A DNA stretch of 64,000 nucleotides from Anaerovibrio slackiae (lineage in GTDB: Bacteria; Bacillota; Negativicutes; Selenomonadales; Selenomonadaceae): assembly GCF_009695585.1 (NCBI RefSeq), contig NZ_VUNR01000010.1, positions 1 through 64,000 on the forward strand, in the 5' to 3' direction. Both the position numbers and the translations under genes were made by a program. Numbering within the stretch: the first letter of the stretch is position 1; each line of letters begins with the position of its first letter. This document shows, one piece after another, positions 1 to 29,998 of this stretch. The notes under the pieces are model-generated. The model did not search any database and was not told where the DNA came from. It saw only the letters and a list, made by a program, of their open reading frames with translations.

Positions 1-26
1 AACTGTTTGTCATGTTGTTTAGCCAT
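1..26 (-). CDS. Start of an unidentified gene, cut by the window edge
   Basis: Only eight codons (MAKQHDKQ) are inside the window, so the product cannot be named. The start is supported by a strong ribosome binding site, AGGAGGA on the minus strand at 34-40, seven bases before the ATG. It follows the radical-SAM gene in the same direction after about 78 bases and may be the next member of the same accessory cassette. Confidence 0.55.
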
Positions 27-47
27 TCTGAAATCCTCCTCAAGATA

Positions 48-64
48 GGTACATATATTGTACC
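48..64. promoter_or_regulatory. Palindrome upstream of the window-edge gene
   Basis: GGTACATATATTGTACC has perfect 5-bp arms around an AT-rich centre. It lies between the radical-SAM stop and the next start, where a promoter for the next gene would be expected. It could be an operator or a small hairpin. No regulator is identified. Confidence 0.3.
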
Positions 65-104
65 ATGTCATGAACTTATTTAGGATTTCTCATTTTGACT
101 TGTA

Positions 105-1055
105 CTATTTATATTCTAACTCCAAGTTATTTCTCAAATTTCTAATAGCAATCTCATAATAATTTGGTGCTACATATTTTGCTCCTTTTATAAAGCCGAC
201 TTCTTTTATTTCATCTATGATAGCATCAAAATCTTTAGATGCAAAGACATTATTATCCAACAATAACAAATGTCTTTTTTCTCCGAAACGCTCCCTTGTA
301 TCTTGTATTCGATTCAATAAAGGAATGTGAGATTTATATTCAGGTTCAAGTTTTGGCACAACACAGAATGCACAGTGATTAACACAGCCTCTTGTCATGT
401 AACCATAGTATCCATCATGTTCAGGATAAACATAATCTATCTCTTCCAATATAGAATAGTCTAATGGTAATTGCTCTATGATGATATCGTTGTCATCAAG
501 CTCTCCACCTTTGTCCAATAATCCTACGATAGGTTTGATGCCTGTTTCTTTTTCAATCTCTTCTGGGACAACAGAAGCGGCAATACCACCAACAAAAACT
601 TGACTTTCATCTTTACAAAACTGTTTGTAGTAATTTATCGCATCTACGGTTTTCTGCCAATAGAAGGTAAACAAAGTTGTTATGCAAACTCTATCCCACT
701 GTGGGTATTGCAAATACTTTTTCTGATGAAAATATTTTCTATATGCTTCCAGTGTTCTTTTTACTAGAGGATATTGAGAATATTTTAATAAACTGTCTAA
801 TTTCTGCTGCCCACCTTTTGTAATGTATTCTACAAGTTCGTCCCAAAGAGTGTTCCACCTTACTGTTGGCTCATTGTTGTTTAAATTTTCCAACAGTAAC
901 TTCATGGTTTCATTAATGGCAAAATCTTTATCTGTACCCTTGTAAAAAACTACTTCGTCCCCAAGCATTCTGTGATAAGTCGCCAATTTCATAAGACTTA
1001 ATGGTGGATATTTATTTTTATAGTTTGGTTCTATAAGTAGTATTTTACGTTTCAT
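105..1055 (-). CDS. Radical-SAM protein, apparently C-terminally short
   Basis: 316 aa. The N-terminus (KRKILLIEPNYKNKYPPLSL) resembles the start of B12-binding-type radical-SAM proteins. A CxxxCxxC iron-sulfur motif is at C224, C228 and C231 (TRGCVNHCAFC), which would ligate the 4Fe-4S cluster that cleaves S-adenosylmethionine. Only about 85 residues follow the motif, whereas a full radical-SAM barrel usually needs around 200, so the protein looks truncated or atypical. The start overlaps the stop of the upstream GHKL ATPase gene by 4 bases (ATGA), indicating translational coupling. The substrate is unknown. The AT-rich codon use matches the rest of the 1-8.3 kb island. Family call is fairly safe; role is not. 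Confidence 0.7.
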   Translation of the reverse strand: MKRKILLIEPNYKNKYPPLSLMKLATYHRMLGDEVVFYKGTDKDFAINETMKLLLENLNNNEPTVRWNTLWDELVEYITKGGQQKLDSLLKYSQYPLVKRTLEAYRKYFHQKKYLQYPQWDRVCITTLFTFYWQKTVDAINYYKQFCKDESQVFVGGIAASVVPEEIEKETGIKPIVGLLDKGGELDDNDIIIEQLPLDYSILEEIDYVYPEHDGYYGYMTRGCVNHCAFCVVPKLEPEYKSHIPLLNRIQDTRERFGEKRHLLLLDNNVFASKDFDAIIDEIKEVGFIKGAKYVAPNYYEIAIRNLRNNLELEYK

Positions 1056-2746
1056 CTGTTGTTCTTTAGCTCCTCATGTATTTTTCTTACCAAATCTGTT
1101 GCTTCTTCCGCAATCATATTTTTGTAAATTACATCATAAATTCTTGAAATGATTTTTCTTGTCTTTTTATCATAACAAGAAAGTTCTTCTGTTAAATATT
1201 TAGTTTTTTCTTTTTTATCTGTTGGTTGTGTAGTTGTGTATTTTTTTGAAGGATGTGTAGCTTTTGTAGCATTAGTAGTTGTGGTAGGATTTTCAGTTTC
1301 AGTAGAAGTATTTGTTTCATTGATAGTCTTGTAGGAACCAAAAGCTTCTTCAACTTTATCCATATCTACATTTTTGTCGCTCTTTATGGCATTGACAATT
1401 TTGGCTACGGCAGAGTTCTTATCTTTATTAGCTTTCGTGTTATACTTTTTTATTGTAGCTAACCCTTCCTTGGCTTTTTCTTTTGCTTTAGCCAATTCAG
1501 CTTCCATTTGGTTTTTGTTTTCAGGTGAAATAAATCTGGTTTGTAAACTTTCATTATACTTTTCTTGTAACTTTTCAGCTTTATCAATGTTGTTATAGCT
1601 ACTATTGATTTCACTACCGGCTTTATAAAGTTTTGACAAGCCTTTAAAATACTCTCTTAACGCATCTTCCAATTCTCTAACTTCTATTGTTTCATTAAAA
1701 TAATCTCTGCGGGCATTAGGACGCAACTTTGGCGAAATCGTATGAATTTCTCCCATAAAGTAACTGTTGCCTCTAGTTTCTTTAAAAAATTTTACCAAAG
1801 TAGTTTTATCGCCAATCTGAATATTAAACTGTCTTAATCTCAACCCTTTGTAAGGATTGCCCATATCGTTTATTGCCCCCTTGAAGGAAGAAATAGCATA
1901 CCAAATCCAAGCAATGGGGTTTCCTTTAGTGTCATATATGATATCGGTCTGTACGCCTTTTATGTCATCTAATCTCTTTTTTTCTTTGCCTGCCATCTTG
2001 TAAATGGCATTAGGATATTCTTTGGAAATATAGTTCAATTCACCATCTTGTCTTCTGATGCCTATATCATAACAATGAATAGGTGGAACTTCTTCATTGT
2101 TTTTTACAAAATTGTAAATTTCACTTCTGAATAGAAATGTTTTCTTAAAATCAACAGGGGCAACTTCTGAAATATACTGCTTTATATCCTTATAGTCAAG
2201 TAATTTATCATTTCCTTCTGTAATTCCAAGCATTTGAACTTCAAAGTAATGAGCATCTTCATCTGCTTCTTTTGCTTCATAAGTAATAATTTCGTCTAAA
2301 ATAGCTTCTGCTGACATATGATTTTTAGAATCCCAAAAGATTTCCTGTAGCCTTTTTGCGTTCCAAATCATTGTGGTTTCTACTTTTTCTCCACGGAAAC
2401 TTGTAATAAATCTAAGTTCATTACAATAACCAATGCCACCTAATCTGCCAATACCTCTAAAACCTTTATTTTGTCCCTGTACTTTTTCAGAATCAGCAAC
2501 GTCACCCAGGCGTTTTTCTACTTCTTTTACAGAAATACCATTAGCGTTATCTCTTATAAAAATATTACGTTTTTTTTCATCTATGGTAATGATAACTTCT
2601 AATTTTTCATCAGGAAAAGAGTTCTTCTCTTTAGCAACATCTATTTGGTCACAACTATTTTGCAAATACTCTCTGTAAACAATTCGTGAATCATCATACA
2701 TTGCCTGTGTCAGATTTTCCAAGACACCTTTGCCAATCTTGCTCAT
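1052..2746 (-). CDS. GHKL-type (MORC/Hsp90-like) ATPase
   Basis: 564 aa. The N-terminal 110 residues carry the Bergerat ATP-binding fold: N-box REYLQNSCDQID (E26, N30, D33), G1 box RDNANG (66-70), and a glycine-rich lid GFRGIGRLGGIGYC (95-108). This is the nucleotide-binding arrangement of Hsp90, MutL and MORC proteins rather than a sensor kinase; no His-kinase dimerisation domain is seen. The C-terminal part is charged and includes a low-complexity Thr/Asn stretch near residue 480. It lies 17 bases after the HerA-like gene and overlaps the radical-SAM gene by 4 bases, so these form one transcription unit. By analogy such ATPases act as DNA or protein clamps. A defence or DNA-repair role is an inference from its partners. 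Confidence 0.8.
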   Translation of the reverse strand: MSKIGKGVLENLTQAMYDDSRIVYREYLQNSCDQIDVAKEKNSFPDEKLEVIITIDEKKRNIFIRDNANGISVKEVEKRLGDVADSEKVQGQNKGFRGIGRLGGIGYCNELRFITSFRGEKVETTMIWNAKRLQEIFWDSKNHMSAEAILDEIITYEAKEADEDAHYFEVQMLGITEGNDKLLDYKDIKQYISEVAPVDFKKTFLFRSEIYNFVKNNEEVPPIHCYDIGIRRQDGELNYISKEYPNAIYKMAGKEKKRLDDIKGVQTDIIYDTKGNPIAWIWYAISSFKGAINDMGNPYKGLRLRQFNIQIGDKTTLVKFFKETRGNSYFMGEIHTISPKLRPNARRDYFNETIEVRELEDALREYFKGLSKLYKAGSEINSSYNNIDKAEKLQEKYNESLQTRFISPENKNQMEAELAKAKEKAKEGLATIKKYNTKANKDKNSAVAKIVNAIKSDKNVDMDKVEEAFGSYKTINETNTSTETENPTTTTNATKATHPSKKYTTTQPTDKKEKTKYLTEELSCYDKKTRKIISRIYDVIYKNMIAEEATDLVRKIHEELKNNR

Positions 2747-2763
2747 AAATATCTCTCCATCTT

Positions 2764-4473
2764 TTATTTAAACTGCTTGTAAATAGGTTCAGGGAATCGT
2801 ATTTTTAATAAAGAGTTAAAACAGAAACTTTGAATCATATATTGTCCTGGCTCTAAACGTGTCATCATGTTTTGATAAACCTTTGGTATATACTTGTAGT
2901 TTGACTTGGAAACTTCAATAGCGTTTGTCCTTCCATAAGCGAAAGAACCGCAGTTGCCTGAAACCCTATTGTGGATAGCACTCATAAACTGCTCTGCTCC
3001 GAACAAAACTACGCCTAAAGAACGGCCACGTTCTGCTACCTCTAAAATCTGGCGGCAAATAGGTGAATTTTTAGCACCTTCGGAAGGTGCATATTTGTTA
3101 AGCTCGTCCATAAAGATTATGATTCGAGAAGGTGGCTTTTTGCCATCCTTTGGTTCAGGTTTTACGCTAAGCTGATAATCCATAATTTCTCTAACTGTTG
3201 TACCGAAGACGAATGCTTGCATATCAGAATCGAGTTTTGCTATGTCAATTACATAAACATCATTAGCGTTAATGTTTTTTATCATATCGCCAATACGAGC
3301 TTCTCCATCTTGGGTTGAACCAAACAGAACATTATTAGAGATAGATTTTTTTATTAAACGATAGAATTTACGCCATGATAATACCGGAATTTCTTTATCC
3401 TTCTTGCTTGAACCTCCACCTGCTTCCTGCATGGATTCAACTTCATTTATGAAGCGGTGCCATTCTTGAATGTTTTTAAAACCACCCTGACCACTAATAA
3501 TGTAGTTAATAATGGAATCAATTGTCTGATTTGGGTCATCAATGTTAGAAAACATCATATCTAAGTTTTGTTTGTCTTTGTTGTAATCAAACTTGTACTC
3601 AAATGCCTTTTTCTGTGATTTTTGCCTTTTCAATCTTTCAGGTGGTACAAAGCTGTTTTTATGGTTATGGTCAGATGCAGGATAGAGGTAAGTTACGTTT
3701 TTAAATGCCTCTTGCGTTAAACCAAGATTTTCATACTTTTTCAAAACAGTTTTTCTGTCGCACATGCTTTGCTTAAAGTCATTCATTTCATCTATTGCCA
3801 AAAGGTCATTTCCTTTTACGTTAAAAGCAACAATTGCTACGCCGTTACTATCTTCATCTTCATCATCAATAGTATTTTCTGCATCAGCAATATATTTGTC
3901 CTGGATAGCTTTTAACAGAAACATAGCATAGGATGTTTTGGCAGCTAAGCCTGAAATGCCGCTAATATTCAAATGAGCCCCTTCTGGTCCAATCAAGAAG
4001 TCGGCACTCAAATGAACAGGTAAAATCTCTTTTTTGCCATGATTATCTTTATCGTGTACTTCCAAATAACCACATACAATAGGATTCTTTACTTTATTTA
4101 AGCCTAAAGCGGTGATAATTTCATCCTTGTTAGCCAAATATACCTTTGAGTTACTGATGACAGGAGAATCTATATTATGTGAATTTCCTACAACTTTTAC
4201 TTTGACATAGTTCATACCAATTCGATAAGTAGAATCTTCAATTTCTGTATCACCAAAGTCATTGGAAATAAAACTGCTCAAAAAGCTTGCGGAGTCAGTA
4301 ATATGAGAAATTTCTTCAATAACACCATAAGTTGTACTGTCATTTAAATGTTTAACTTTCACAACATCAAATGGGCGTAAAATGGTTTCAGGTTGTGTCC
4401 AAAAGTGAAAACTATCTATTGTAGTAGGAACTTTTTCTGTGGCAATAACTTTACCGATTGGTTTGTTTGGCAT
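2764..4473 (-). CDS. HerA-like DNA-translocase ATPase
   Basis: 569 aa. An N-terminal HAS-barrel-like region of about 150 residues is followed by a P-loop with variant sequence GISGLAAKT (172-180). A Walker B segment IIIFMDELNKYAP lies near residue 450, followed by ERGRSLGVVLFGAEQF, which matches the sensor/arginine region of the HerA-FtsK superfamily. HerA forms hexamers that pump DNA and normally partners the NurA nuclease. Here the gene lies 15 bases after the C-terminal half of a NurA-like gene. The first P-loop glycine context is unusual (LAAKT instead of SGKS/T) but keeps the Lys-Thr. Likely first intact gene of the cassette downstream of the IS insertion, so its expression may depend on the IS or a new promoter. 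Confidence 0.8.
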   Translation of the reverse strand: MPNKPIGKVIATEKVPTTIDSFHFWTQPETILRPFDVVKVKHLNDSTTYGVIEEISHITDSASFLSSFISNDFGDTEIEDSTYRIGMNYVKVKVVGNSHNIDSPVISNSKVYLANKDEIITALGLNKVKNPIVCGYLEVHDKDNHGKKEILPVHLSADFLIGPEGAHLNISGISGLAAKTSYAMFLLKAIQDKYIADAENTIDDEDEDSNGVAIVAFNVKGNDLLAIDEMNDFKQSMCDRKTVLKKYENLGLTQEAFKNVTYLYPASDHNHKNSFVPPERLKRQKSQKKAFEYKFDYNKDKQNLDMMFSNIDDPNQTIDSIINYIISGQGGFKNIQEWHRFINEVESMQEAGGGSSKKDKEIPVLSWRKFYRLIKKSISNNVLFGSTQDGEARIGDMIKNINANDVYVIDIAKLDSDMQAFVFGTTVREIMDYQLSVKPEPKDGKKPPSRIIIFMDELNKYAPSEGAKNSPICRQILEVAERGRSLGVVLFGAEQFMSAIHNRVSGNCGSFAYGRTNAIEVSKSNYKYIPKVYQNMMTRLEPGQYMIQSFCFNSLLKIRFPEPIYKQFK

Positions 4474-4488
4474 AACTATTCTCTCCCC

Positions 4489-5325
4489 TTAAAACAGTTT
4501 TAAAAAAGTATCATTAAAAATGTATTTACTTTTAGCAAATAATTCTGTCACATATACAGGATACAAGTGATTTGCCCATCTGCCATCTTTGCCATAAGCA
4601 ACAGGGTTTCTTTCCAACAAAAGCCATGCAGAAATTCTGTCTATAATCTCTGAATCTATGCCATCTTGTTTTTCATCTTCCTGAATAAGTTTTTCGATTT
4701 TTACAATACCATCGAAAACATTTTTTGTATATTTGCTATCTCTAAGTCTTAAATACCAAACACAGAAAGATACTCCTTCACCTGAAATTTTAGAGCGGTA
4801 ACAATAAGCAGGTGTTCTTTCGTTCTTTTTCAATCCTGCAACAATGCTGGAATTTGTACCTCCGCCCTTCACTTGACACATAGTTGGATTAAACGATTTA
4901 GAAACTCCAATAACATATTGGTACGCATTTTTCATTTTGGCATCCGTCAAATCCATACTTCTGTTATTGGTTGCCTTATATTCCAAGGAGCCATCTTTGA
5001 TTAAATACGCATCATCTCTTATTTTTCCCTCTTTTACTAATTTTAAAACTGCTTTTTTCTCTTGTTCAATCATATAATCTTGAATTTTTGCAATTCCTTT
5101 ATTTTCAAACTTTTCGCCCCTATCAAGATTATAGAGAAGGATATCGTCTAATTTTAAATTTCTCTTTGTTAAGTTTGTACTTTGGTTCAGTTTTCCTAAA
5201 AGTTTGGTTGCTTCGATATCTTTGTTAAACTCACTCGTATAATAAGTTTTGTAAGCAAGATATCCGCCTTGTATGCAAAACTTATTTTTCTTTTTACAAC
5301 TAAATATTTTTCTATGAAATTGGAT
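4489..5325 (-). pseudogene. C-terminal half of a NurA-like nuclease gene, split by IS110
   Basis: An open frame runs leftward from about 5334, but the first ATG is only at 5073. Residues upstream of that Met (for example KLDDILLYNLDRGEKFENKG) read as genuine protein, so the true start is missing. The half carries a second DGS-type acidic motif (AYLIKDGSLEYK), as expected for the C-terminal metal-binding part of NurA. The matching N-terminal half lies on the other side of the IS at 6943-7410, same strand. The last IS base against the gene is about 5326, within roughly 10 bases. Whether an internal start at 5073 makes a 194-aa fragment is unknown. Confidence 0.7.
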
Positions 5326-5394
5326 TTCCTGATGCTACAATAATCAAAGAGATTATGCGGCAAAGGCAACGTCTTTCACTCCTCGCAGCATCTT

Positions 5395-5545
5395 TGTATG
5401 ACTGCTTAATTAGCTTGACGCCTGCCTTAATCGTCAAATACTGCTTACACAGGTGTTGCAGCCCTGGGCGAGAGCACTACCAGCAAGCATTACTCTCACA
5501 GGTGACTGCTTATTAGCGAGGGTGCAGTCAGCGATTAAGATCAGG
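5395..5545 (+). ncRNA. Candidate IS110 bridge RNA region
   Basis: The non-coding left end contains two hairpins: TTGACG (5415-5420) pairing with CGTCAA (5432-5437), and TGACTGC (5503-5509) pairing with GCAGTCA (5524-5530) around a 14-base loop. A near-repeat GACTGCTTAATTAGC / GACTGCTTATTAGC occurs at 5400-5414 and 5504-5517. IS110-group elements are known to express a structured bridge RNA from the left end, with loops that pair with target and donor DNA. Position and structure fit; which loop is which was not resolved, and ends of the RNA are a guess. Confidence 0.45.
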
Positions 5546-5593
5546 ATAATCCTTGCCCATCATCCATCACTAGCCGGAAAGGTGGTGTTTACT

Positions 5594-6877
5594 TTGAAGA
5601 AGGCGGATCTTCTTTCTACTCTATTTGTCGGTATTGACATCAGCTCAAGGGAAAATGTTGTGGCCCTCATGGACTTTGAATCCACTAAGCCAATTGCATC
5701 TTTTGCAGTGCCCAATAATGAGCCAGGTGCCGAGAAAATGGCTAAGAAAATATCAGAGTTTTTTACACCTGAAAGTGGTCTTCGTAGACTTGTAATCAGC
5801 TTGGAATCTACATCCTTTTATGGAGTGCATATCGCCAATTACTTGTCTACATGCCGCATCCTTATGCCATTTCACACCGAAGTGTACTGTTTAAATCCTA
5901 AAAGTATTGCCAACTACAAGAAGTCCTATATTGGGCTTGGCAAAAACGACTACGTTGATGCATTCATCATTGCCGACTTTGCCCGTGTTGGCAGGATTAC
6001 TACTAAACCATGGCGCGGTTGCCAGTATCTCGCTTTGCAAAGGCTGACACGCCATCGCCTTCATCTGGTCAAAGCCCTTACAAGGGAAAAGACCTACATG
6101 CTCTCTAATATATTCCTCAAGTTCAGCGAATTTACCATGCTGGATGCAGAGGAGCAGCCATTCTCCAATGAGTTCGGAGCTACAGCATCTGCGGTTCTTA
6201 CCGAATTCCTCTCTACTGAAGAGATTGTTGACATGCCTATGGAAAAGCTTGTTGAATTCATCTGCGAGAAAGGCCGCAATAGATTTACAGATCCTCAGAA
6301 AACAGCCAATCTCTTGCAGGCAGCTGCAAGAAATTCCTATCGTCTGGATAAGTGTCTGTATGAGCCTCTTACAGTCGCAATCGCCTCATCCTTCACCATG
6401 ATCTCTACATACAATGCGGAAATCAAGAAGGTTAATAAGGCTATCGAAACAACCATTAAAGGGCTCAATCCAAATGCTTTCCTGTCGCTCCAGTCTATCC
6501 CTGGCGTTGGCCCGGTTATGGCTGCAGGAATCATGGCTGAAATCGGAGACATACACATTTTTAAATCTCAGGAATCGTTAGCCAAGTATGCTGGCCTGGT
6601 ATGGCGTGAAAACCAATCCGGTCAGTTCAAAGCTGATGATACACCCATGAGCAAGGCCGGTAACTCCTATCTTAGATATTATCTACTGGAAGCGACCAGC
6701 CATATTAGAATCCATTGCCCCGAATACGGGGAATATTACTCCAAGAAATACGCTGAGGTGAAAACCCATCAGCATAAACGTGCACTCGCTCTCACAGCTC
6801 GTAAAGCCATAAAGTTGATTTTTGGATTGCTGGCCAGGAATCAGCTCTACTCCAGAAACAGAGTAGGCCAAGCATAA
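5594..6877 (+). CDS. IS110-family transposase (DEDD/serine recombinase)
   Basis: 427 aa from a TTG start, chosen because GGAAAGGTGG lies at 5576-5585 about eight bases upstream; GTG codons at 5582 and 5585 are alternatives. The long in-frame extension to 5453 overlaps the candidate bridge RNA and looks non-coding. The N-terminal RuvC-like domain shows the family's acidic residues (VGIDIS, SLESTSFYG, KNDYVDAFIIADF). The C-terminal Transposase_20 part shows SIPGVGPVMAAGI and SKAGNSYLRYYL with the catalytic-type serine. The gene appears intact, so the element may still be active. Confidence 0.9.
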   Translation: MKKADLLSTLFVGIDISSRENVVALMDFESTKPIASFAVPNNEPGAEKMAKKISEFFTPESGLRRLVISLESTSFYGVHIANYLSTCRILMPFHTEVYCLNPKSIANYKKSYIGLGKNDYVDAFIIADFARVGRITTKPWRGCQYLALQRLTRHRLHLVKALTREKTYMLSNIFLKFSEFTMLDAEEQPFSNEFGATASAVLTEFLSTEEIVDMPMEKLVEFICEKGRNRFTDPQKTANLLQAAARNSYRLDKCLYEPLTVAIASSFTMISTYNAEIKKVNKAIETTIKGLNPNAFLSLQSIPGVGPVMAAGIMAEIGDIHIFKSQESLAKYAGLVWRENQSGQFKADDTPMSKAGNSYLRYYLLEATSHIRIHCPEYGEYYSKKYAEVKTHQHKRALALTARKAIKLIFGLLARNQLYSRNRVGQA

Positions 6878-6942
6878 TATTTACAAACATGCCTTTGGGA
6901 TTTTTGCTTATAATCCTGAAGGTTTGTTAAGTGCACTTTATT

Positions 6943-7410
6943 TCAAGAATTTGCTTCAAAAACTTTTGAGAAAACCTGTTGACATATTACCAGGTTGCTA
7001 ACAATGGCACCGGTCGGAATACAAATAACAAGTTTTCGTTCAAAAAACTCTGTCATCATTTTTTTATTAACACGTTTGCAACAGCTAATACCTACTTGTC
7101 CTGCCAATATTGGATAGACATTTTCTCTTAAAGCTATATCATCAATTTTGTAAGTGTGCCTTGACCCATCTAAAAAGTATTTGAACCATGACTCTTCTTG
7201 AGAATTCCGAAGTATTTCTACCAACCCTGTCAAATCTTTTGCCTTTTTTATATGCTCTGATTCGCCATATTCTTCCCATTCTACTTCCTGGTCAGAATCA
7301 TATTCTACTACTGAATTATTTTGAGTATCATAACAAAACTTGTGTGATTGATACCTCTTGCTATGAAGCTTTTTGGTGGCTTCTATAAATGTGTCCATAA
7401 CTCCATTCAT
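6943..7410 (-). pseudogene. N-terminal half of the NurA-like nuclease gene
   Basis: The open frame encodes 155 aa. It has a DGS motif (KYFLDGSRHTYKID, D81) followed by PILAGQVGISCC, which fits the N-terminal catalytic region of NurA 5'-3' nucleases that work with HerA. The frame ends at 6943 just inside the IS (last residues FEANS). The remainder of the protein continues at about 5325 on the far side. The ATG at 7410 has only a weak upstream purine stretch; a Met at residue 5 is an alternative. Naming rests on the two DGS motifs plus the adjacent HerA-like gene. Confidence 0.65.
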
Positions 7411-7861: not shown

Positions 7862-8314
7862 ATGAGAAAACATACAATACGCATTAAATGGAGTTATCCA
7901 GTGCTTTTGGAGAATATCGATAATGCAAAGTTTAAGGAATATAATGGTGTATATGCGATTTCTCGTGTCTGGGGCGAGAAAACTTCTGAACCGCAGAAGG
8001 AGAAGCTTTTGTATATAGGCAAGACTGAGAGAAGCTTCGAACAGCGTATTTTTGAACATACCCAGTATAAACTGGCTGACAAGCGTGGAAATATGTATGT
8101 GCGTTTTGGTATTATACAGAATGAATTTCCCCCGGAGGTTTTGGATGACATTGAAAGTGCTTTGATATGTAGCTTACAGCCGGAATTGAATCGCTCCAAG
8201 ATAAAAGAGTACACATATAAGAGCGATTATTTTGTTTATATAATCAATGAAGGGTATAGAGGTGTCGATGTTATTGCCAAAGAGATTGATGCAAAGCTTC
8301 AATTTTATGAATAG
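7862..8314 (+). CDS. GIY-YIG-domain protein
   Basis: 150 aa. The GIY-YIG nuclease signatures are in order: GVYAIS (near residue 28), LLYIGKTERS, an arginine in EQRIFEH, the metal-binding-type glutamate in DDIESALI, and an asparagine in QPELN. The fold normally makes single-strand cuts in DNA using one metal ion. No extra DNA-binding domain is seen, so it is a stand-alone domain protein. Its AT-rich composition belongs to the upstream island, and it is the last gene before the GC-rich chromosome resumes. It could be part of the same defence or mobile cargo, or a lone selfish nuclease. Confidence 0.75.
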   Translation: MRKHTIRIKWSYPVLLENIDNAKFKEYNGVYAISRVWGEKTSEPQKEKLLYIGKTERSFEQRIFEHTQYKLADKRGNMYVRFGIIQNEFPPEVLDDIESALICSLQPELNRSKIKEYTYKSDYFVYIINEGYRGVDVIAKEIDAKLQFYE

Positions 8315-8408: not shown

Positions 8409-9206
8409 GTGCTGAAAATAGCCATTGTGGAGGATGAGGAAATCATCCGCATGGGGCTGGCGTATACGGTAGACTGGCAGTCCATGGGGGCGCAGGTGGT
8501 TGGCGAGGCGGCAGATGGCCTGGAAGGGCTGGAGATAGTGGCGGCAGCCCGGCCTGATGTGGTGCTGACGGATATCAGGATGCCCCGCATGAACGGGCTG
8601 GATATGGCAAAGGTGCTGGCGGAGAAGCATCCGGCAGTCAAGGTGGTGTTCCTCACCAGCTATGCGGATTTTGAGTATGCCAGGCAGGCGGTGCGGCTGA
8701 ATGCCTGTGATTATCTCCTGAAGCCGGTGGATGAGGGGGAGCTGGCAAAGGTTTTGGCCAGGCTCCATGAGGAAATGGCACCCCGGGAGGCCGGGGGGCA
8801 TGGCGGCGGCGCAGATGATGCCGGGGCGGAGACGCTGGTGGACTGGCAGGAGCTTTTGGCACAGGAGGGGCTGAATGCCTATGTGCGGCAGGTGCTGGAG
8901 AAAATCCAGGTGGAATATGCCTCAAGGCTCAGCATAGAGGATTGTGCTGAGGCCATGCAGGTCAGTACCAGCTATCTGAGCCGCAAGCTGAAGGAGGTCA
9001 CCGGCCATACCTTTGGCACCCTTCTGGCAAGGTACAGGCTGCAGGAGGCGTTGAAGCTTCTGGATGATGGCAGGTACAAGGTCTACGAGGTGGCGGAGTA
9101 CACGGGCTTCGGGGAGTACAAGAATTTCTGCCAGGTGTTCAAGAAGTATTTGCAGGTATCTCCCAAGCGGTATATGCAGGAACGGGAGCTGAAATTGTCG
9201 AAATGA
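8409..9206 (+). CDS. Response regulator with AraC-type DNA-binding domain (YesN-like)
   Basis: 265 aa from a GTG start with AAAGGGGTGG just upstream. The N-terminal receiver domain has the acidic pair (VEDEE), phospho-acceptor D55 (VLTDIRMPRMNG), and the conserved threonine (FLTSY) and lysine (LLKPVD). The C-terminal 100 residues are a double helix-turn-helix of the AraC class (DCAEAMQVSTSYLSRKLK; VAEYTGFGEYKNFCQVFKK). No sensor kinase gene is adjacent. Three 11-base direct repeats spaced by 21 bases lie just downstream at 9229-9281, the spacing typical of AraC-family half-sites, so it may regulate the following phosphatase gene. Confidence 0.92.
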   Translation: MLKIAIVEDEEIIRMGLAYTVDWQSMGAQVVGEAADGLEGLEIVAAARPDVVLTDIRMPRMNGLDMAKVLAEKHPAVKVVFLTSYADFEYARQAVRLNACDYLLKPVDEGELAKVLARLHEEMAPREAGGHGGGADDAGAETLVDWQELLAQEGLNAYVRQVLEKIQVEYASRLSIEDCAEAMQVSTSYLSRKLKEVTGHTFGTLLARYRLQEALKLLDDGRYKVYEVAEYTGFGEYKNFCQVFKKYLQVSPKRYMQERELKLSK

Positions 9207-27865: not shown

Positions 27866-29998
27866 ATGAGGATGAAAAAGAGCAATAAGAAGCTGGCGGC
27901 TTTAGTTGGCTTGACATTAGGGTTTTATGCAGCTCATAGTGTTACCTTGTATGATGCGCCGTTAAATGATGGTTGGGGCATAAGTGTTGCTTGTGCAGAA
28001 GAAAGCGGTGGCGAAGGCAGCGGCGGTGAAGGCAGCGGCGGCGAAGGCAGCGGCGGCGAAGGCAGCGGCGGCGAAGGCAGCGGCGGTGAAGGCAGCGGCG
28101 GTGAAGGCAGCGGCGGTGAAGGCAGCGGCGGTGAAGGCAGCGGCGGTGAAGGCAGCGGCGGCGAAGGCAGCGGCGGTGAAGGCAGCGGCGGCGAAGGCAG
28201 CGGCGGTGAAGGCAGCGGCGGCGAAGGCAGCGGCGGTGAAGGCAGCGGCGGCGAAGGCAGCGGCGGTGAAGGCAGCGGCGGTGAAGGCAGCGGCGGCGAA
28301 GGCAGCGGCGGTGAAGGCAGCGGCGGTGAAGGCAGCGGCGGCGAAGGCAGCGGCGGCGAAGGCAGCGGCGGTGAAGGCAGCGGCGGCGAAGGCAGCGGCG
28401 GCGAAGGCAGCGGCGGCGAAGGCAGCGGCGGTGAAGGCAGCGGCGGCGAAGGCAGCGGCGGCGAAGGCAGCGGCGGTGAAGGCAGCGGCGGCGAAGGCAG
28501 CGGCGGTGAAGGCAGCGGCGGCGAAGGCAGCGGCGGCGAAGGCAGCGGCGGTGAAGGCAGCGGCGGTGAAGGCAGCGGCGGCGAAGGCAGCGGCGGCGAA
28601 GGCAGCGGCGGTGAAGGCAGCGGCGGTGAAGGCAGCGGCGGTGAAGGCAGCGGCGGCGAAGGCAGCGGCGGCGAAGGCAGCGGCGGTGAAGGCAGCGGCG
28701 GTGAAGGCAGCGGCGGTGAAGGCAGCGGCGGTGAAGGCAGCGAAAGCGGCATAGAGAGCGCAATTGCCGCAGCAGATGAGGTATTGCAGTCTGTGAGTGA
28801 AGCTGTTGGTGGTATAGTTGAGCTTGATGCAGTAAAAGTAGCTTCAGTTGATCCATTCAAGTCTGTTTTGCCAAATGCAAATGATATAGCAAAACTGCTA
28901 AACCCTAGCGCAGAGCAAATTGCAGAAATAAGCGCAGCACGGTCGGCATTGTTGGAAGCTCGTGCAGAGCTTGTGGCTTTTGTCAACAATAGCCGGGTAA
29001 GGATTTCTACGGAGGAAGCAGTACAGCAGATTGCTGAAATAGATGAAAGGCTGGATGCTCTTGATTTAGAAAAACAGGCAGCTAGAATAACTGCTGCTGT
29101 CCAGCAGGCAGGTAAAACTGCAGCTGCCCCTGGCGTAACTTCTGCCCGTGCCGCAACTGCCATCACCAACGTGCTGACAAACAACGTGGTGAACCGTACT
29201 GCGGAAATCCGTGGCTTTGCTTCCGCAGTTGATGAGGGACGCCCTGCTCCTGACAAGATGTGGTTCCAGTACAAGCATACCAACATGGATGTAGATGGCG
29301 GCGATGTTTATAACAAGTCCACCATTAACACCAACAACTTCCAGCTGGGTTATGATACCCAGATTGGCGAGAACGATTACCTGGGTGCTTATATCGGCAC
29401 TACTACTGGCAATGCAGATTTCAATGGCCCGGCTCAGAGTGGGCGCATTGATATTGACAACTCCTTTGACTTTGGTGTGTACGGTACTCATATGCTGCCG
29501 AATGACCAGTATATTGACTACATGATTCATACCGGCAAGTTTGACAGTGAGTATGACAGCAGCAAGTGGGGAACTACGGACACAGGTGCTATGCTGGGCT
29601 ACGGCGCAAAGATTTCCCAGAGCGACCGCCTGACTCTGAACCCTTACATCCAGCTGGCTTATGATAAGATTAGCGTGGATAGCTATACCACCAGGGTTGG
29701 CAACGTAATCAAGAGCGATGACAGCAACAACTGGACTGCTAAGCTGGGTGTAAACCTGATTGATGCCAGCGGATTGTATGGCGGTGTTGCTTATAGCAGG
29801 GGACTTTCCGGCAGCTACAATGCCTACATCAATGGCGTGGCTATGCCTACTAATGATTACAATGCCAACGTGCTGTACCTGAGTCTTGGCTACCGTGCAA
29901 GCATGGCAAAGAATGCAGTGCTTGACCTTTCCATGGAGAAAACATTCATGGATTACAAGGGATGGACTGCGGCAGGCAAGGTGAATTTCTACTTCTGA
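27866..29998 (+). CDS. Autotransporter-type surface protein with GSGGE repeat domain
   Basis: 710 aa from ATG 27866 (GGGAGGA eight bases upstream). A lysine-rich N-terminus and hydrophobic segment ([15 protein letters not shown]) form an export signal, likely cut near ACA-EE. Residues about 47-293 are some 48 uninterrupted GSGGE units. Next comes an alpha-helical stalk-like region rich in Ala/Glu (295-440), then a C-terminal outer-membrane barrel of about 265 residues with alternating strands and a terminal Phe (VNFYF), as in autotransporter beta-domains. The protein is thus expected on the outer membrane. Length variation in the repeat would not shift the frame. Divergent XRE repressor probably controls it. 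Passenger function unknown. Confidence 0.88.
28006..28743 (+). repeat. 15-base tandem repeat array, about 48 units
   Basis: Unit GGCAGCGGCGGYGAA, where only Y (T or C, a synonymous position) varies. From 28021 the units by fours read TCCC TTTT TCTC TCTC TTCT TCCT CCCT CCTC TCCT TCCT TTCC TTTT, showing duplicated 60-base blocks. No other substitution is seen in about 720 bases. Confidence 0.97.

What the first reader, a model, noticed from the sequence alone, without database searches (positions are those of the whole stretch)
1..7410. HerA / NurA-like / GHKL ATPase / radical-SAM cassette, possible undescribed defence or repair system
HerA-NurA pairs are known DNA-processing machines and occur in phage defence. 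Adding a MORC/Hsp90-like GHKL ATPase and a radical-SAM protein in one tightly coupled operon (4-17 base gaps or overlaps) on an AT-rich island is a combination I do not recognise as a named system. At least one more gene follows beyond the window.
Basis: partly seen in the sequence, partly recalled or inferred. Interest (0 to 1): 0.75.

Follow-up and report, generated by a model that had tools for sequence, protein, structure and literature searches.

The report
Unnamed HerA–NurA–GHKL–radical-SAM defence cassette
A four-gene cassette found intact in many unrelated bacteria looks like an unnamed system for attacking foreign DNA; it joins a DNA-pumping nuclease to a chaperone-like ATPase and a radical enzyme that also turn up beside three other defence machines, and the copy seen here has been broken by two jumping genes.

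Summary
On the minus strand the window holds NurA-like, HerA, GHKL ATPase and radical-SAM (rSAM) genes with 15, 17 and -4 bp spacing. The copy is dead: a multi-copy IS110 element splits NurA, and a second multi-copy element truncates rSAM at the contig end. The 'further gene' beyond the window is not supported. Sister genomes lack the cassette at this site.

Of 81 related HerA loci with room, 80 carry all four genes on one strand, across more than ten phyla. None of the four matched a named PADLOC system, and no paper in the open library describes the set.

Neighbouring DNA methylases are nearly absent, and the three Pbe+rSAM genomes have no dndC anywhere.

Best reading: a mobile restriction-type defence system in which HerA–NurA destroys DNA and rSAM–GHKL is a portable module, possibly marking self DNA. 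Defence about 0.85; DNA modification by rSAM about 0.4. No function was tested.

The parts
6943..7410 (-). NurA-like nuclease, N-terminal part (interrupted gene; last few residues come from the IS)
   Evidence: Same cluster as the 380-450 aa NurA-like proteins of relatives; DGSR motif
4489..5331 (-). NurA-like nuclease, C-terminal part; frame open from the IS edge to the stop (annotated ORF 4489-5073)
   Evidence: Translation without stops; KDGSLEY motif; alignment of intact relatives
5331..6945 (+). IS110-family insertion element (transposase ORF 5453-6877) inside the NurA gene; ends approximate
   Evidence: DEDD_Tnp_IS110 2.6e-25 and Transposase_20 2.5e-22; element ends recur at 11 other places, many at contig ends; no terminal inverted repeats found
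2764..4473 (-). HerA hexameric DNA-translocase ATPase (569 aa, apparently intact)
   Evidence: E 4e-54 to 7f6d HerA; invariant GISGLAxKTS and DELNK motifs
1052..2746 (-). GHKL (Hsp90-like) ATPase, 564 aa, apparently intact
   Evidence: HATPase_c_3 in relatives; HtpG 2.6e-10; AF2 model pLDDT 88, Foldseek Hsp90/TRAP1/HtpG about 6e-16
105..1055 (-). Radical-SAM protein, front half only (homologous to about window 125; last residues come from an inserted element)
   Evidence: TRGCVNHCAFC motif and Radical_SAM 4.8e-5; full-length relatives about 600-680 aa; truncation
1..124 (.). End of a second multi-copy insertion element that truncates the rSAM gene; contig end
   Evidence: 98-100% identical copies at C12, C65, C15

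Best explanation
The cassette is a decayed copy of a widespread, horizontally moving, four-gene system that acts against invading DNA. HerA forms a hexameric pump that feeds double-stranded DNA into a NurA dimer, which degrades it; this is inferred from the solved HerA-NurA complexes. The GHKL protein (Hsp90-like N and middle domains plus a helical tail) and the radical-SAM enzyme (Rossmann/B12-like domain plus a CxxxCxxC barrel, closest in fold to TsrM, MgmA and MiaB/RimO) form a second, portable module. That module is also used by Pbe-type, DISARM-type and SNF2-ParB-DGQHR systems. The most likely job of rSAM is to place a chemical mark on host DNA, or on a partner that identifies host DNA, taking the place that DndACDE or a methylase has in related systems. 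GHKL would be an ATP-driven clamp or switch that loads or licenses the nuclease. Shown: gene set, order, conservation, exchange of partners, decay of this copy. Inferred: nuclease action, defence (about 0.85), marking by rSAM (about 0.4).
For: 80/81 HerA loci with room carry all four genes on one strand. Pairwise distances of the four proteins correlate at 0.86-0.95, null maximum 0.24 (species relatedness contributes). HerA is the DrHerA type. Patchy: 20 of 300 genomes of the class. Two same-genus genomes (about 90% identical flank) lack it at this site, homology ending at about window 7660. Flanks contain AbiE, AbiL, AriA-like, integrase, resolvase and relaxase genes, more than control regions. 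rSAM-GHKL with PbeA 4e-218, PbeC 2e-188, dnd_assoc_4 and DGQHR 2e-53; with DrmA 3e-161 and DrmB 1e-52; with SNF2, ParB_N, DndB. One rSAM clade (100/100) mixes Pbe, DISARM and SNF2-ParB partners. No dndC above E 1e-5 in the three Pbe+rSAM genomes. Methylase motifs in only about 6 of 113 loci. CxC-DndE (Pbe) systems were already proposed to accept modifications other than phosphorothioate (PMC10853773).
Against: No function was tested. NurA identity rests on weak profile matches plus motifs. No DNA-recognition domain was identified in rSAM, and its substrate could be protein, RNA or a nucleotide. Foldseek matches are fold-level (TM 0.3-0.5). PT made by non-DndC routes was not excluded. The methylase scan was by motif only. 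Defence enrichment in flanks is modest and the control is small. HerA-NurA also has a repair role in archaea and Deinococcus.
Confidence: 0.55

Rival explanations
1. Defence without DNA marking: GHKL (alone or with rSAM) senses infection; rSAM makes a small antiviral molecule, as prokaryotic viperins do, or modifies a protein; HerA-NurA or the swapped module executes.
For: rSAM-GHKL is shared by different executor modules, as a sensor would be. Nucleotide-cyclase-like plus GHKL pairs occur beside some loci. Pbe was reported to act without detected DNA cleavage (PMC6459918).
Against: Partner modules (Pbe/DndE, DISARM DrmAB, DGQHR/ParB) are ones known to work beside DNA modification enzymes, and none was found here. 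The rSAM fold matches B12-fold methyl/methylthio-transferases; viperin was not among the listed best matches.
Confidence: 0.35
2. A DNA-repair operon: HerA-NurA end resection assisted by GHKL and rSAM, serving the host chromosome.
For: HerA is closest to D. radiodurans HerA, implicated in end resection; distant HerA relatives on plasmids sit with SbcCD-type genes.
Against: Patchy presence, absence from sister genomes at the site, decay by IS elements, defence and mobility neighbours, and replacement of HerA-NurA by Pbe, DISARM or SNF2-ParB modules.
Confidence: 0.08
3. A chance cluster of unrelated genes on a decaying AT-rich island.
For: This copy is broken twice and lies at a contig end.
Against: 80 of 81 related loci keep the same set, with conserved order and a few nested insertions.
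Confidence: 0.01

Closest known systems
HerA-NurA pair (Deinococcus / archaea; PDB 7f6d; PMC12977600)
   Same: HerA of the same type (E 4e-54), adjacent NurA-like nuclease, likely the same pump-plus-nuclease machine
   Different: Known pairs act alone or with Mre11-Rad50/SbcCD; here they are tied to GHKL and rSAM, and SbcCD was not seen in the cassette
Sir2-HerA and HerA-DUF4297 defence systems
   Same: HerA ATPase hexamer coupled to an effector in defence
   Different: Effector is NurA-like, no Sir2 or DUF4297; two further conserved genes
PbeABCD / CxC-DndE systems with phosphorothioation (PMC6459918, PMC10853773)
   Same: Some rSAM-GHKL pairs stand next to PbeA, PbeC, a PbeD/DndE-like gene and DGQHR
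   Different: The window cassette has no Pbe genes; rSAM+GHKL is not part of described Pbe and no dndC was found in the three genomes that have both
DISARM
   Same: One provirus contig (L178) carries DrmA and DrmB followed by rSAM and GHKL
   Different: Window cassette has no Drm genes; no methylase seen in L178
Menshen (NsnABC)
   Same: NsnB-like (5.6e-60) and NsnC-like (1.7e-4) genes are nested in the operon of some Bacteroidota
   Different: Accessory insertions only; absent from the window

Membership tests
HerA-NurA end-processing pair | HerA-type hexameric ATPase | tested here: met
   4.3e-54 to 7f6d HerA; conserved P-loop-like and DELNK motifs
HerA-NurA end-processing pair | NurA nuclease next to HerA | tested here: inconclusive
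   Motifs invariant, hhalign 90.8%, but direct match to 7f6d NurA only E 0.015-0.32 and no Pfam NurA hit. In the window the gene is split.
HerA-NurA end-processing pair | Linkage to Mre11-Rad50 / SbcCD | tested here: not met
   No SbcCD in the cassette; SbcCD is found with distant HerA relatives
Sir2-HerA / HerA-DUF4297 defence | Sir2 or DUF4297 partner | tested here: not met
   No such Pfam/PADLOC hit in the operon proteins
PbeABCD / Dnd | PbeA and PbeC (and DndE-like PbeD) present | tested here: not met
   Absent from the window; present beside other rSAM-GHKL pairs L197, L198, L213
PbeABCD / Dnd | DndC for phosphorothioation in the genome | tested here: not met
   None in G317, G469, G610 at E<=1e-5; only a weak sub-cut-off hit in G000
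DISARM | DrmA and DrmB | tested here: not met
   Not in the window; present in L178 with rSAM-GHKL
Radical SAM superfamily | CxxxCxxC cluster motif in a SAM barrel | tested here: met
   Motif Cys invariant in 47/47 and in 26 further sequences; Foldseek TsrM 1.7e-8, MiaB 2.3e-6. The window copy keeps the motif but is truncated.
GHKL ATPases | N, G1 and G2 boxes (E..xN..D, DNxxG, GFRGIGRL) | tested here: met
   Invariant in 48 sequences; Hsp90 fold

The most novel reading that the evidence does not exclude
The rSAM-GHKL pair is a new class of DNA-modification module: a radical-SAM enzyme of the B12/methylthiotransferase fold marks host DNA, and interchangeable restriction modules (HerA-NurA, Pbe, DISARM DrmAB, SNF2-ParB) destroy unmarked DNA. 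This would be a restriction-modification superfamily using radical chemistry instead of methylases or phosphorothioation.
Probability: 0.35. Interest if true: 0.93.

Novelty: new variant of a known kind. Interest (0 to 1): 0.74.

Why it matters
It gives a widespread HerA–NurA lineage a defence setting and exposes a portable rSAM–GHKL module that links four otherwise separate DNA-targeting systems. If rSAM marks DNA, it would add a new chemistry to restriction–modification and would explain how Pbe and DISARM-like loci work without dndC or a methylase. LC-MS of DNA from existing strains (for example Novosphingobium aromaticivorans carrying pNL1) could test this directly.

Tried and rejected
Single-sequence search of viral contigs with window HerA found nothing; the alignment found five, so it is not mainly a phage gene. 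PDB sequence search with the rSAM profile found nothing. The missing back half of rSAM was sought in the whole genome and not found. Inverted repeats at the IS110 ends: none, as usual for IS110. A methylase as hidden modification partner: rejected by motif scan, after discounting NPPF matches inside rSAM itself. Menshen membership considered because of NsnB/NsnC hits, rejected as nested accessory genes. A paper likely to be relevant (CxC ABC ATPase survey, NAR 2020) is not held, so prior mention of rSAM there cannot be excluded. L034 showed no HerA in my ORF calls although one search shows an open HerA frame there; treated as an ORF-caller artefact.

Full report
What is there. The window starts at the end of contig C2 of a 3.0 Mb genome that belongs to the same genus as G109. 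G109's contig has the length of Anaerovibrio lipolyticus An883, so the host is an Anaerovibrio relative (Selenomonadaceae). On the minus strand lie NurA-like, HerA, GHKL and radical-SAM genes with gaps of 15, 17 and -4 bp, on a stretch of 32–36% GC against about 50–56% beyond it.

The copy is broken. An IS110 element (transposase 5453–6877 +) lies inside NurA; both NurA parts are open up to the element. The element ends occur at 11 other places, mostly contig ends. The rSAM ORF of 316 aa is the front half of a protein of about 600–680 aa; window 1–124 is the end of another repeated element, and the rest of rSAM is not in the assembly.

Identity of the parts. The HerA profile matches D. radiodurans HerA (7f6d) at 4e-54. 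NurA matches its 7f6d partner only weakly (0.015; 0.32 with a broader alignment), but has invariant DG(S)R and KDG(S)L motifs and aligns by hhalign (90.8%) with SbcCD-linked NurA-like proteins. The GHKL protein has all ATP-site boxes invariant; its AF2 model (pLDDT 88) matches Hsp90, TRAP1 and HtpG. The rSAM model, made from a full-length relative because the window copy is truncated (pLDDT 92.8), matches TsrM, MgmA, MiaB, AprD4 and RimO, that is a Rossmann/B12-like domain plus SAM barrel. The three cluster cysteines are invariant.

Conservation. Of 300 genomes in the class, 20 have the HerA. A collection scan found 346 relatives in 84,980 species genomes; the best 80 include Bacillota, Bacteroidota, Planctomycetota, Spirochaetota, Deferribacterota, Ignavibacteriota, Thermodesulfobacteriota, Lentisphaerota, Cloacimonadota and, as metagenome bins, Patescibacteria, Aminicenantes, a Gastranaerophilales bacterium and a Woesearchaeote. 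Of 81 loci with enough flanking DNA, 80 have all four genes on one strand (maps). Distances between the four proteins correlate at 0.86–0.95; shared species history contributes to this.

Mobility and context. In two genomes of the same genus the flank is about 90% identical up to window about 7660; there a sensor-kinase gene stands where the cassette is. Genes flanking the cassette elsewhere include AbiE, AbiL, AriA-like, Schlafen AlbA_2, integrases, resolvases and relaxases; random regions of the same genomes gave mostly single generic hits. This enrichment is modest. Some Bacteroidota carry NsnB/NsnC-like (Menshen) genes inside the operon.

The unexpected result. The rSAM–GHKL pair also lives without HerA–NurA. 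In G317, G469 and G610 rSAM follows a PbeA–PbeC–dnd_assoc_4 set, with GHKL in G317 and G610 (none was called in G469) and DGQHR in G317. In provirus contig L178 the pair follows DISARM DrmA and DrmB and a NERD–UvrD protein. In L180, L181, L183–L186 and plasmids of Rhizobium it stands with an SNF2 helicase, ParB_N proteins and DGQHR/DndB; on plasmids of Novosphingobium and Bradyrhizobium the DGQHR–rSAM–GHKL core is present. In a rSAM tree, one clade with 100/100 support contains Pbe, DISARM and SNF2–ParB partners, and HerA–NurA partners need at least two changes. Partners have thus been exchanged.

Mechanism. HerA–NurA is inferred to translocate and degrade double-stranded DNA from solved complexes (PMC12977600, which itself suggests an antiviral role). 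For rSAM–GHKL, the partner modules are those that in known systems stand beside a DNA-marking enzyme. Here methylase motifs are nearly absent and dndC is absent from the three Pbe+rSAM genomes. Rakesh et al. (PMC10853773) already argued that DndDE-type cores recruit modifications other than phosphorothioate; in the held text 'radical SAM' occurs only in a discussion of DndC. The simplest reading is that rSAM supplies the mark and GHKL acts as an ATP-driven clamp or switch. A sensor or small-molecule role for rSAM–GHKL remains almost as likely.

Literature. No held paper combines HerA, NurA and GHKL, or NurA and radical SAM as a system. Subscription papers and preprints are not held, so novelty is limited to this library and PADLOC 2023. 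The full-length rSAM was not run against PADLOC; the truncated window protein was.

Verdict.

Noticed in passing
L090, L100, L117, L124 (between GHKL and rSAM): A second GHKL ATPase (about 550 aa, weak MzaB-like hit) plus a protein of about 330-375 aa without Pfam or PADLOC match is nested in the operon.
   Followed up: partly
L061:15195-17423, L069:15163-17443, L176:5726-7990; also L073, L078, L081: A pair of a protein of about 250 aa resembling a nucleotide cyclase (by eye, no Pfam hit) and another GHKL ATPase stands next to rSAM; possibly a separate small system.
   Followed up: partly
L092, L105, L108, L115, L126: NsnB/NsnC-like (Menshen) genes inside the operon, in four of the five between two GHKL copies.
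   Followed up: partly
L215:11322-14843, L216:3135-6643, L217:3221-6665: PIN-like domain protein plus ATP-binding protein repeatedly next to the DGQHR-rSAM-GHKL core on alphaproteobacterial plasmids.
   Followed up: no
L174:6251-7936, L175:6361-7926, L179:5654-7957: rSAM relatives paired only with a ParB-like or DGQHR protein, without GHKL, in provirus contigs.
   Followed up: partly
window 7862-8314 +: Small GIY-YIG-like gene next to the insertion point, conserved in one sister genome (L231).
   Followed up: partly
window 8409-9206 +; L231:8573-10099: A response regulator whose sensor-kinase neighbour in sister genomes is missing on this side of the cassette.
   Followed up: partly
window 28001-29000: A 1 kb stretch with 68% GC and very strong strand bias (GC skew 0.37, AT skew 0.42), unlike the rest of the window.
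   Followed up: no
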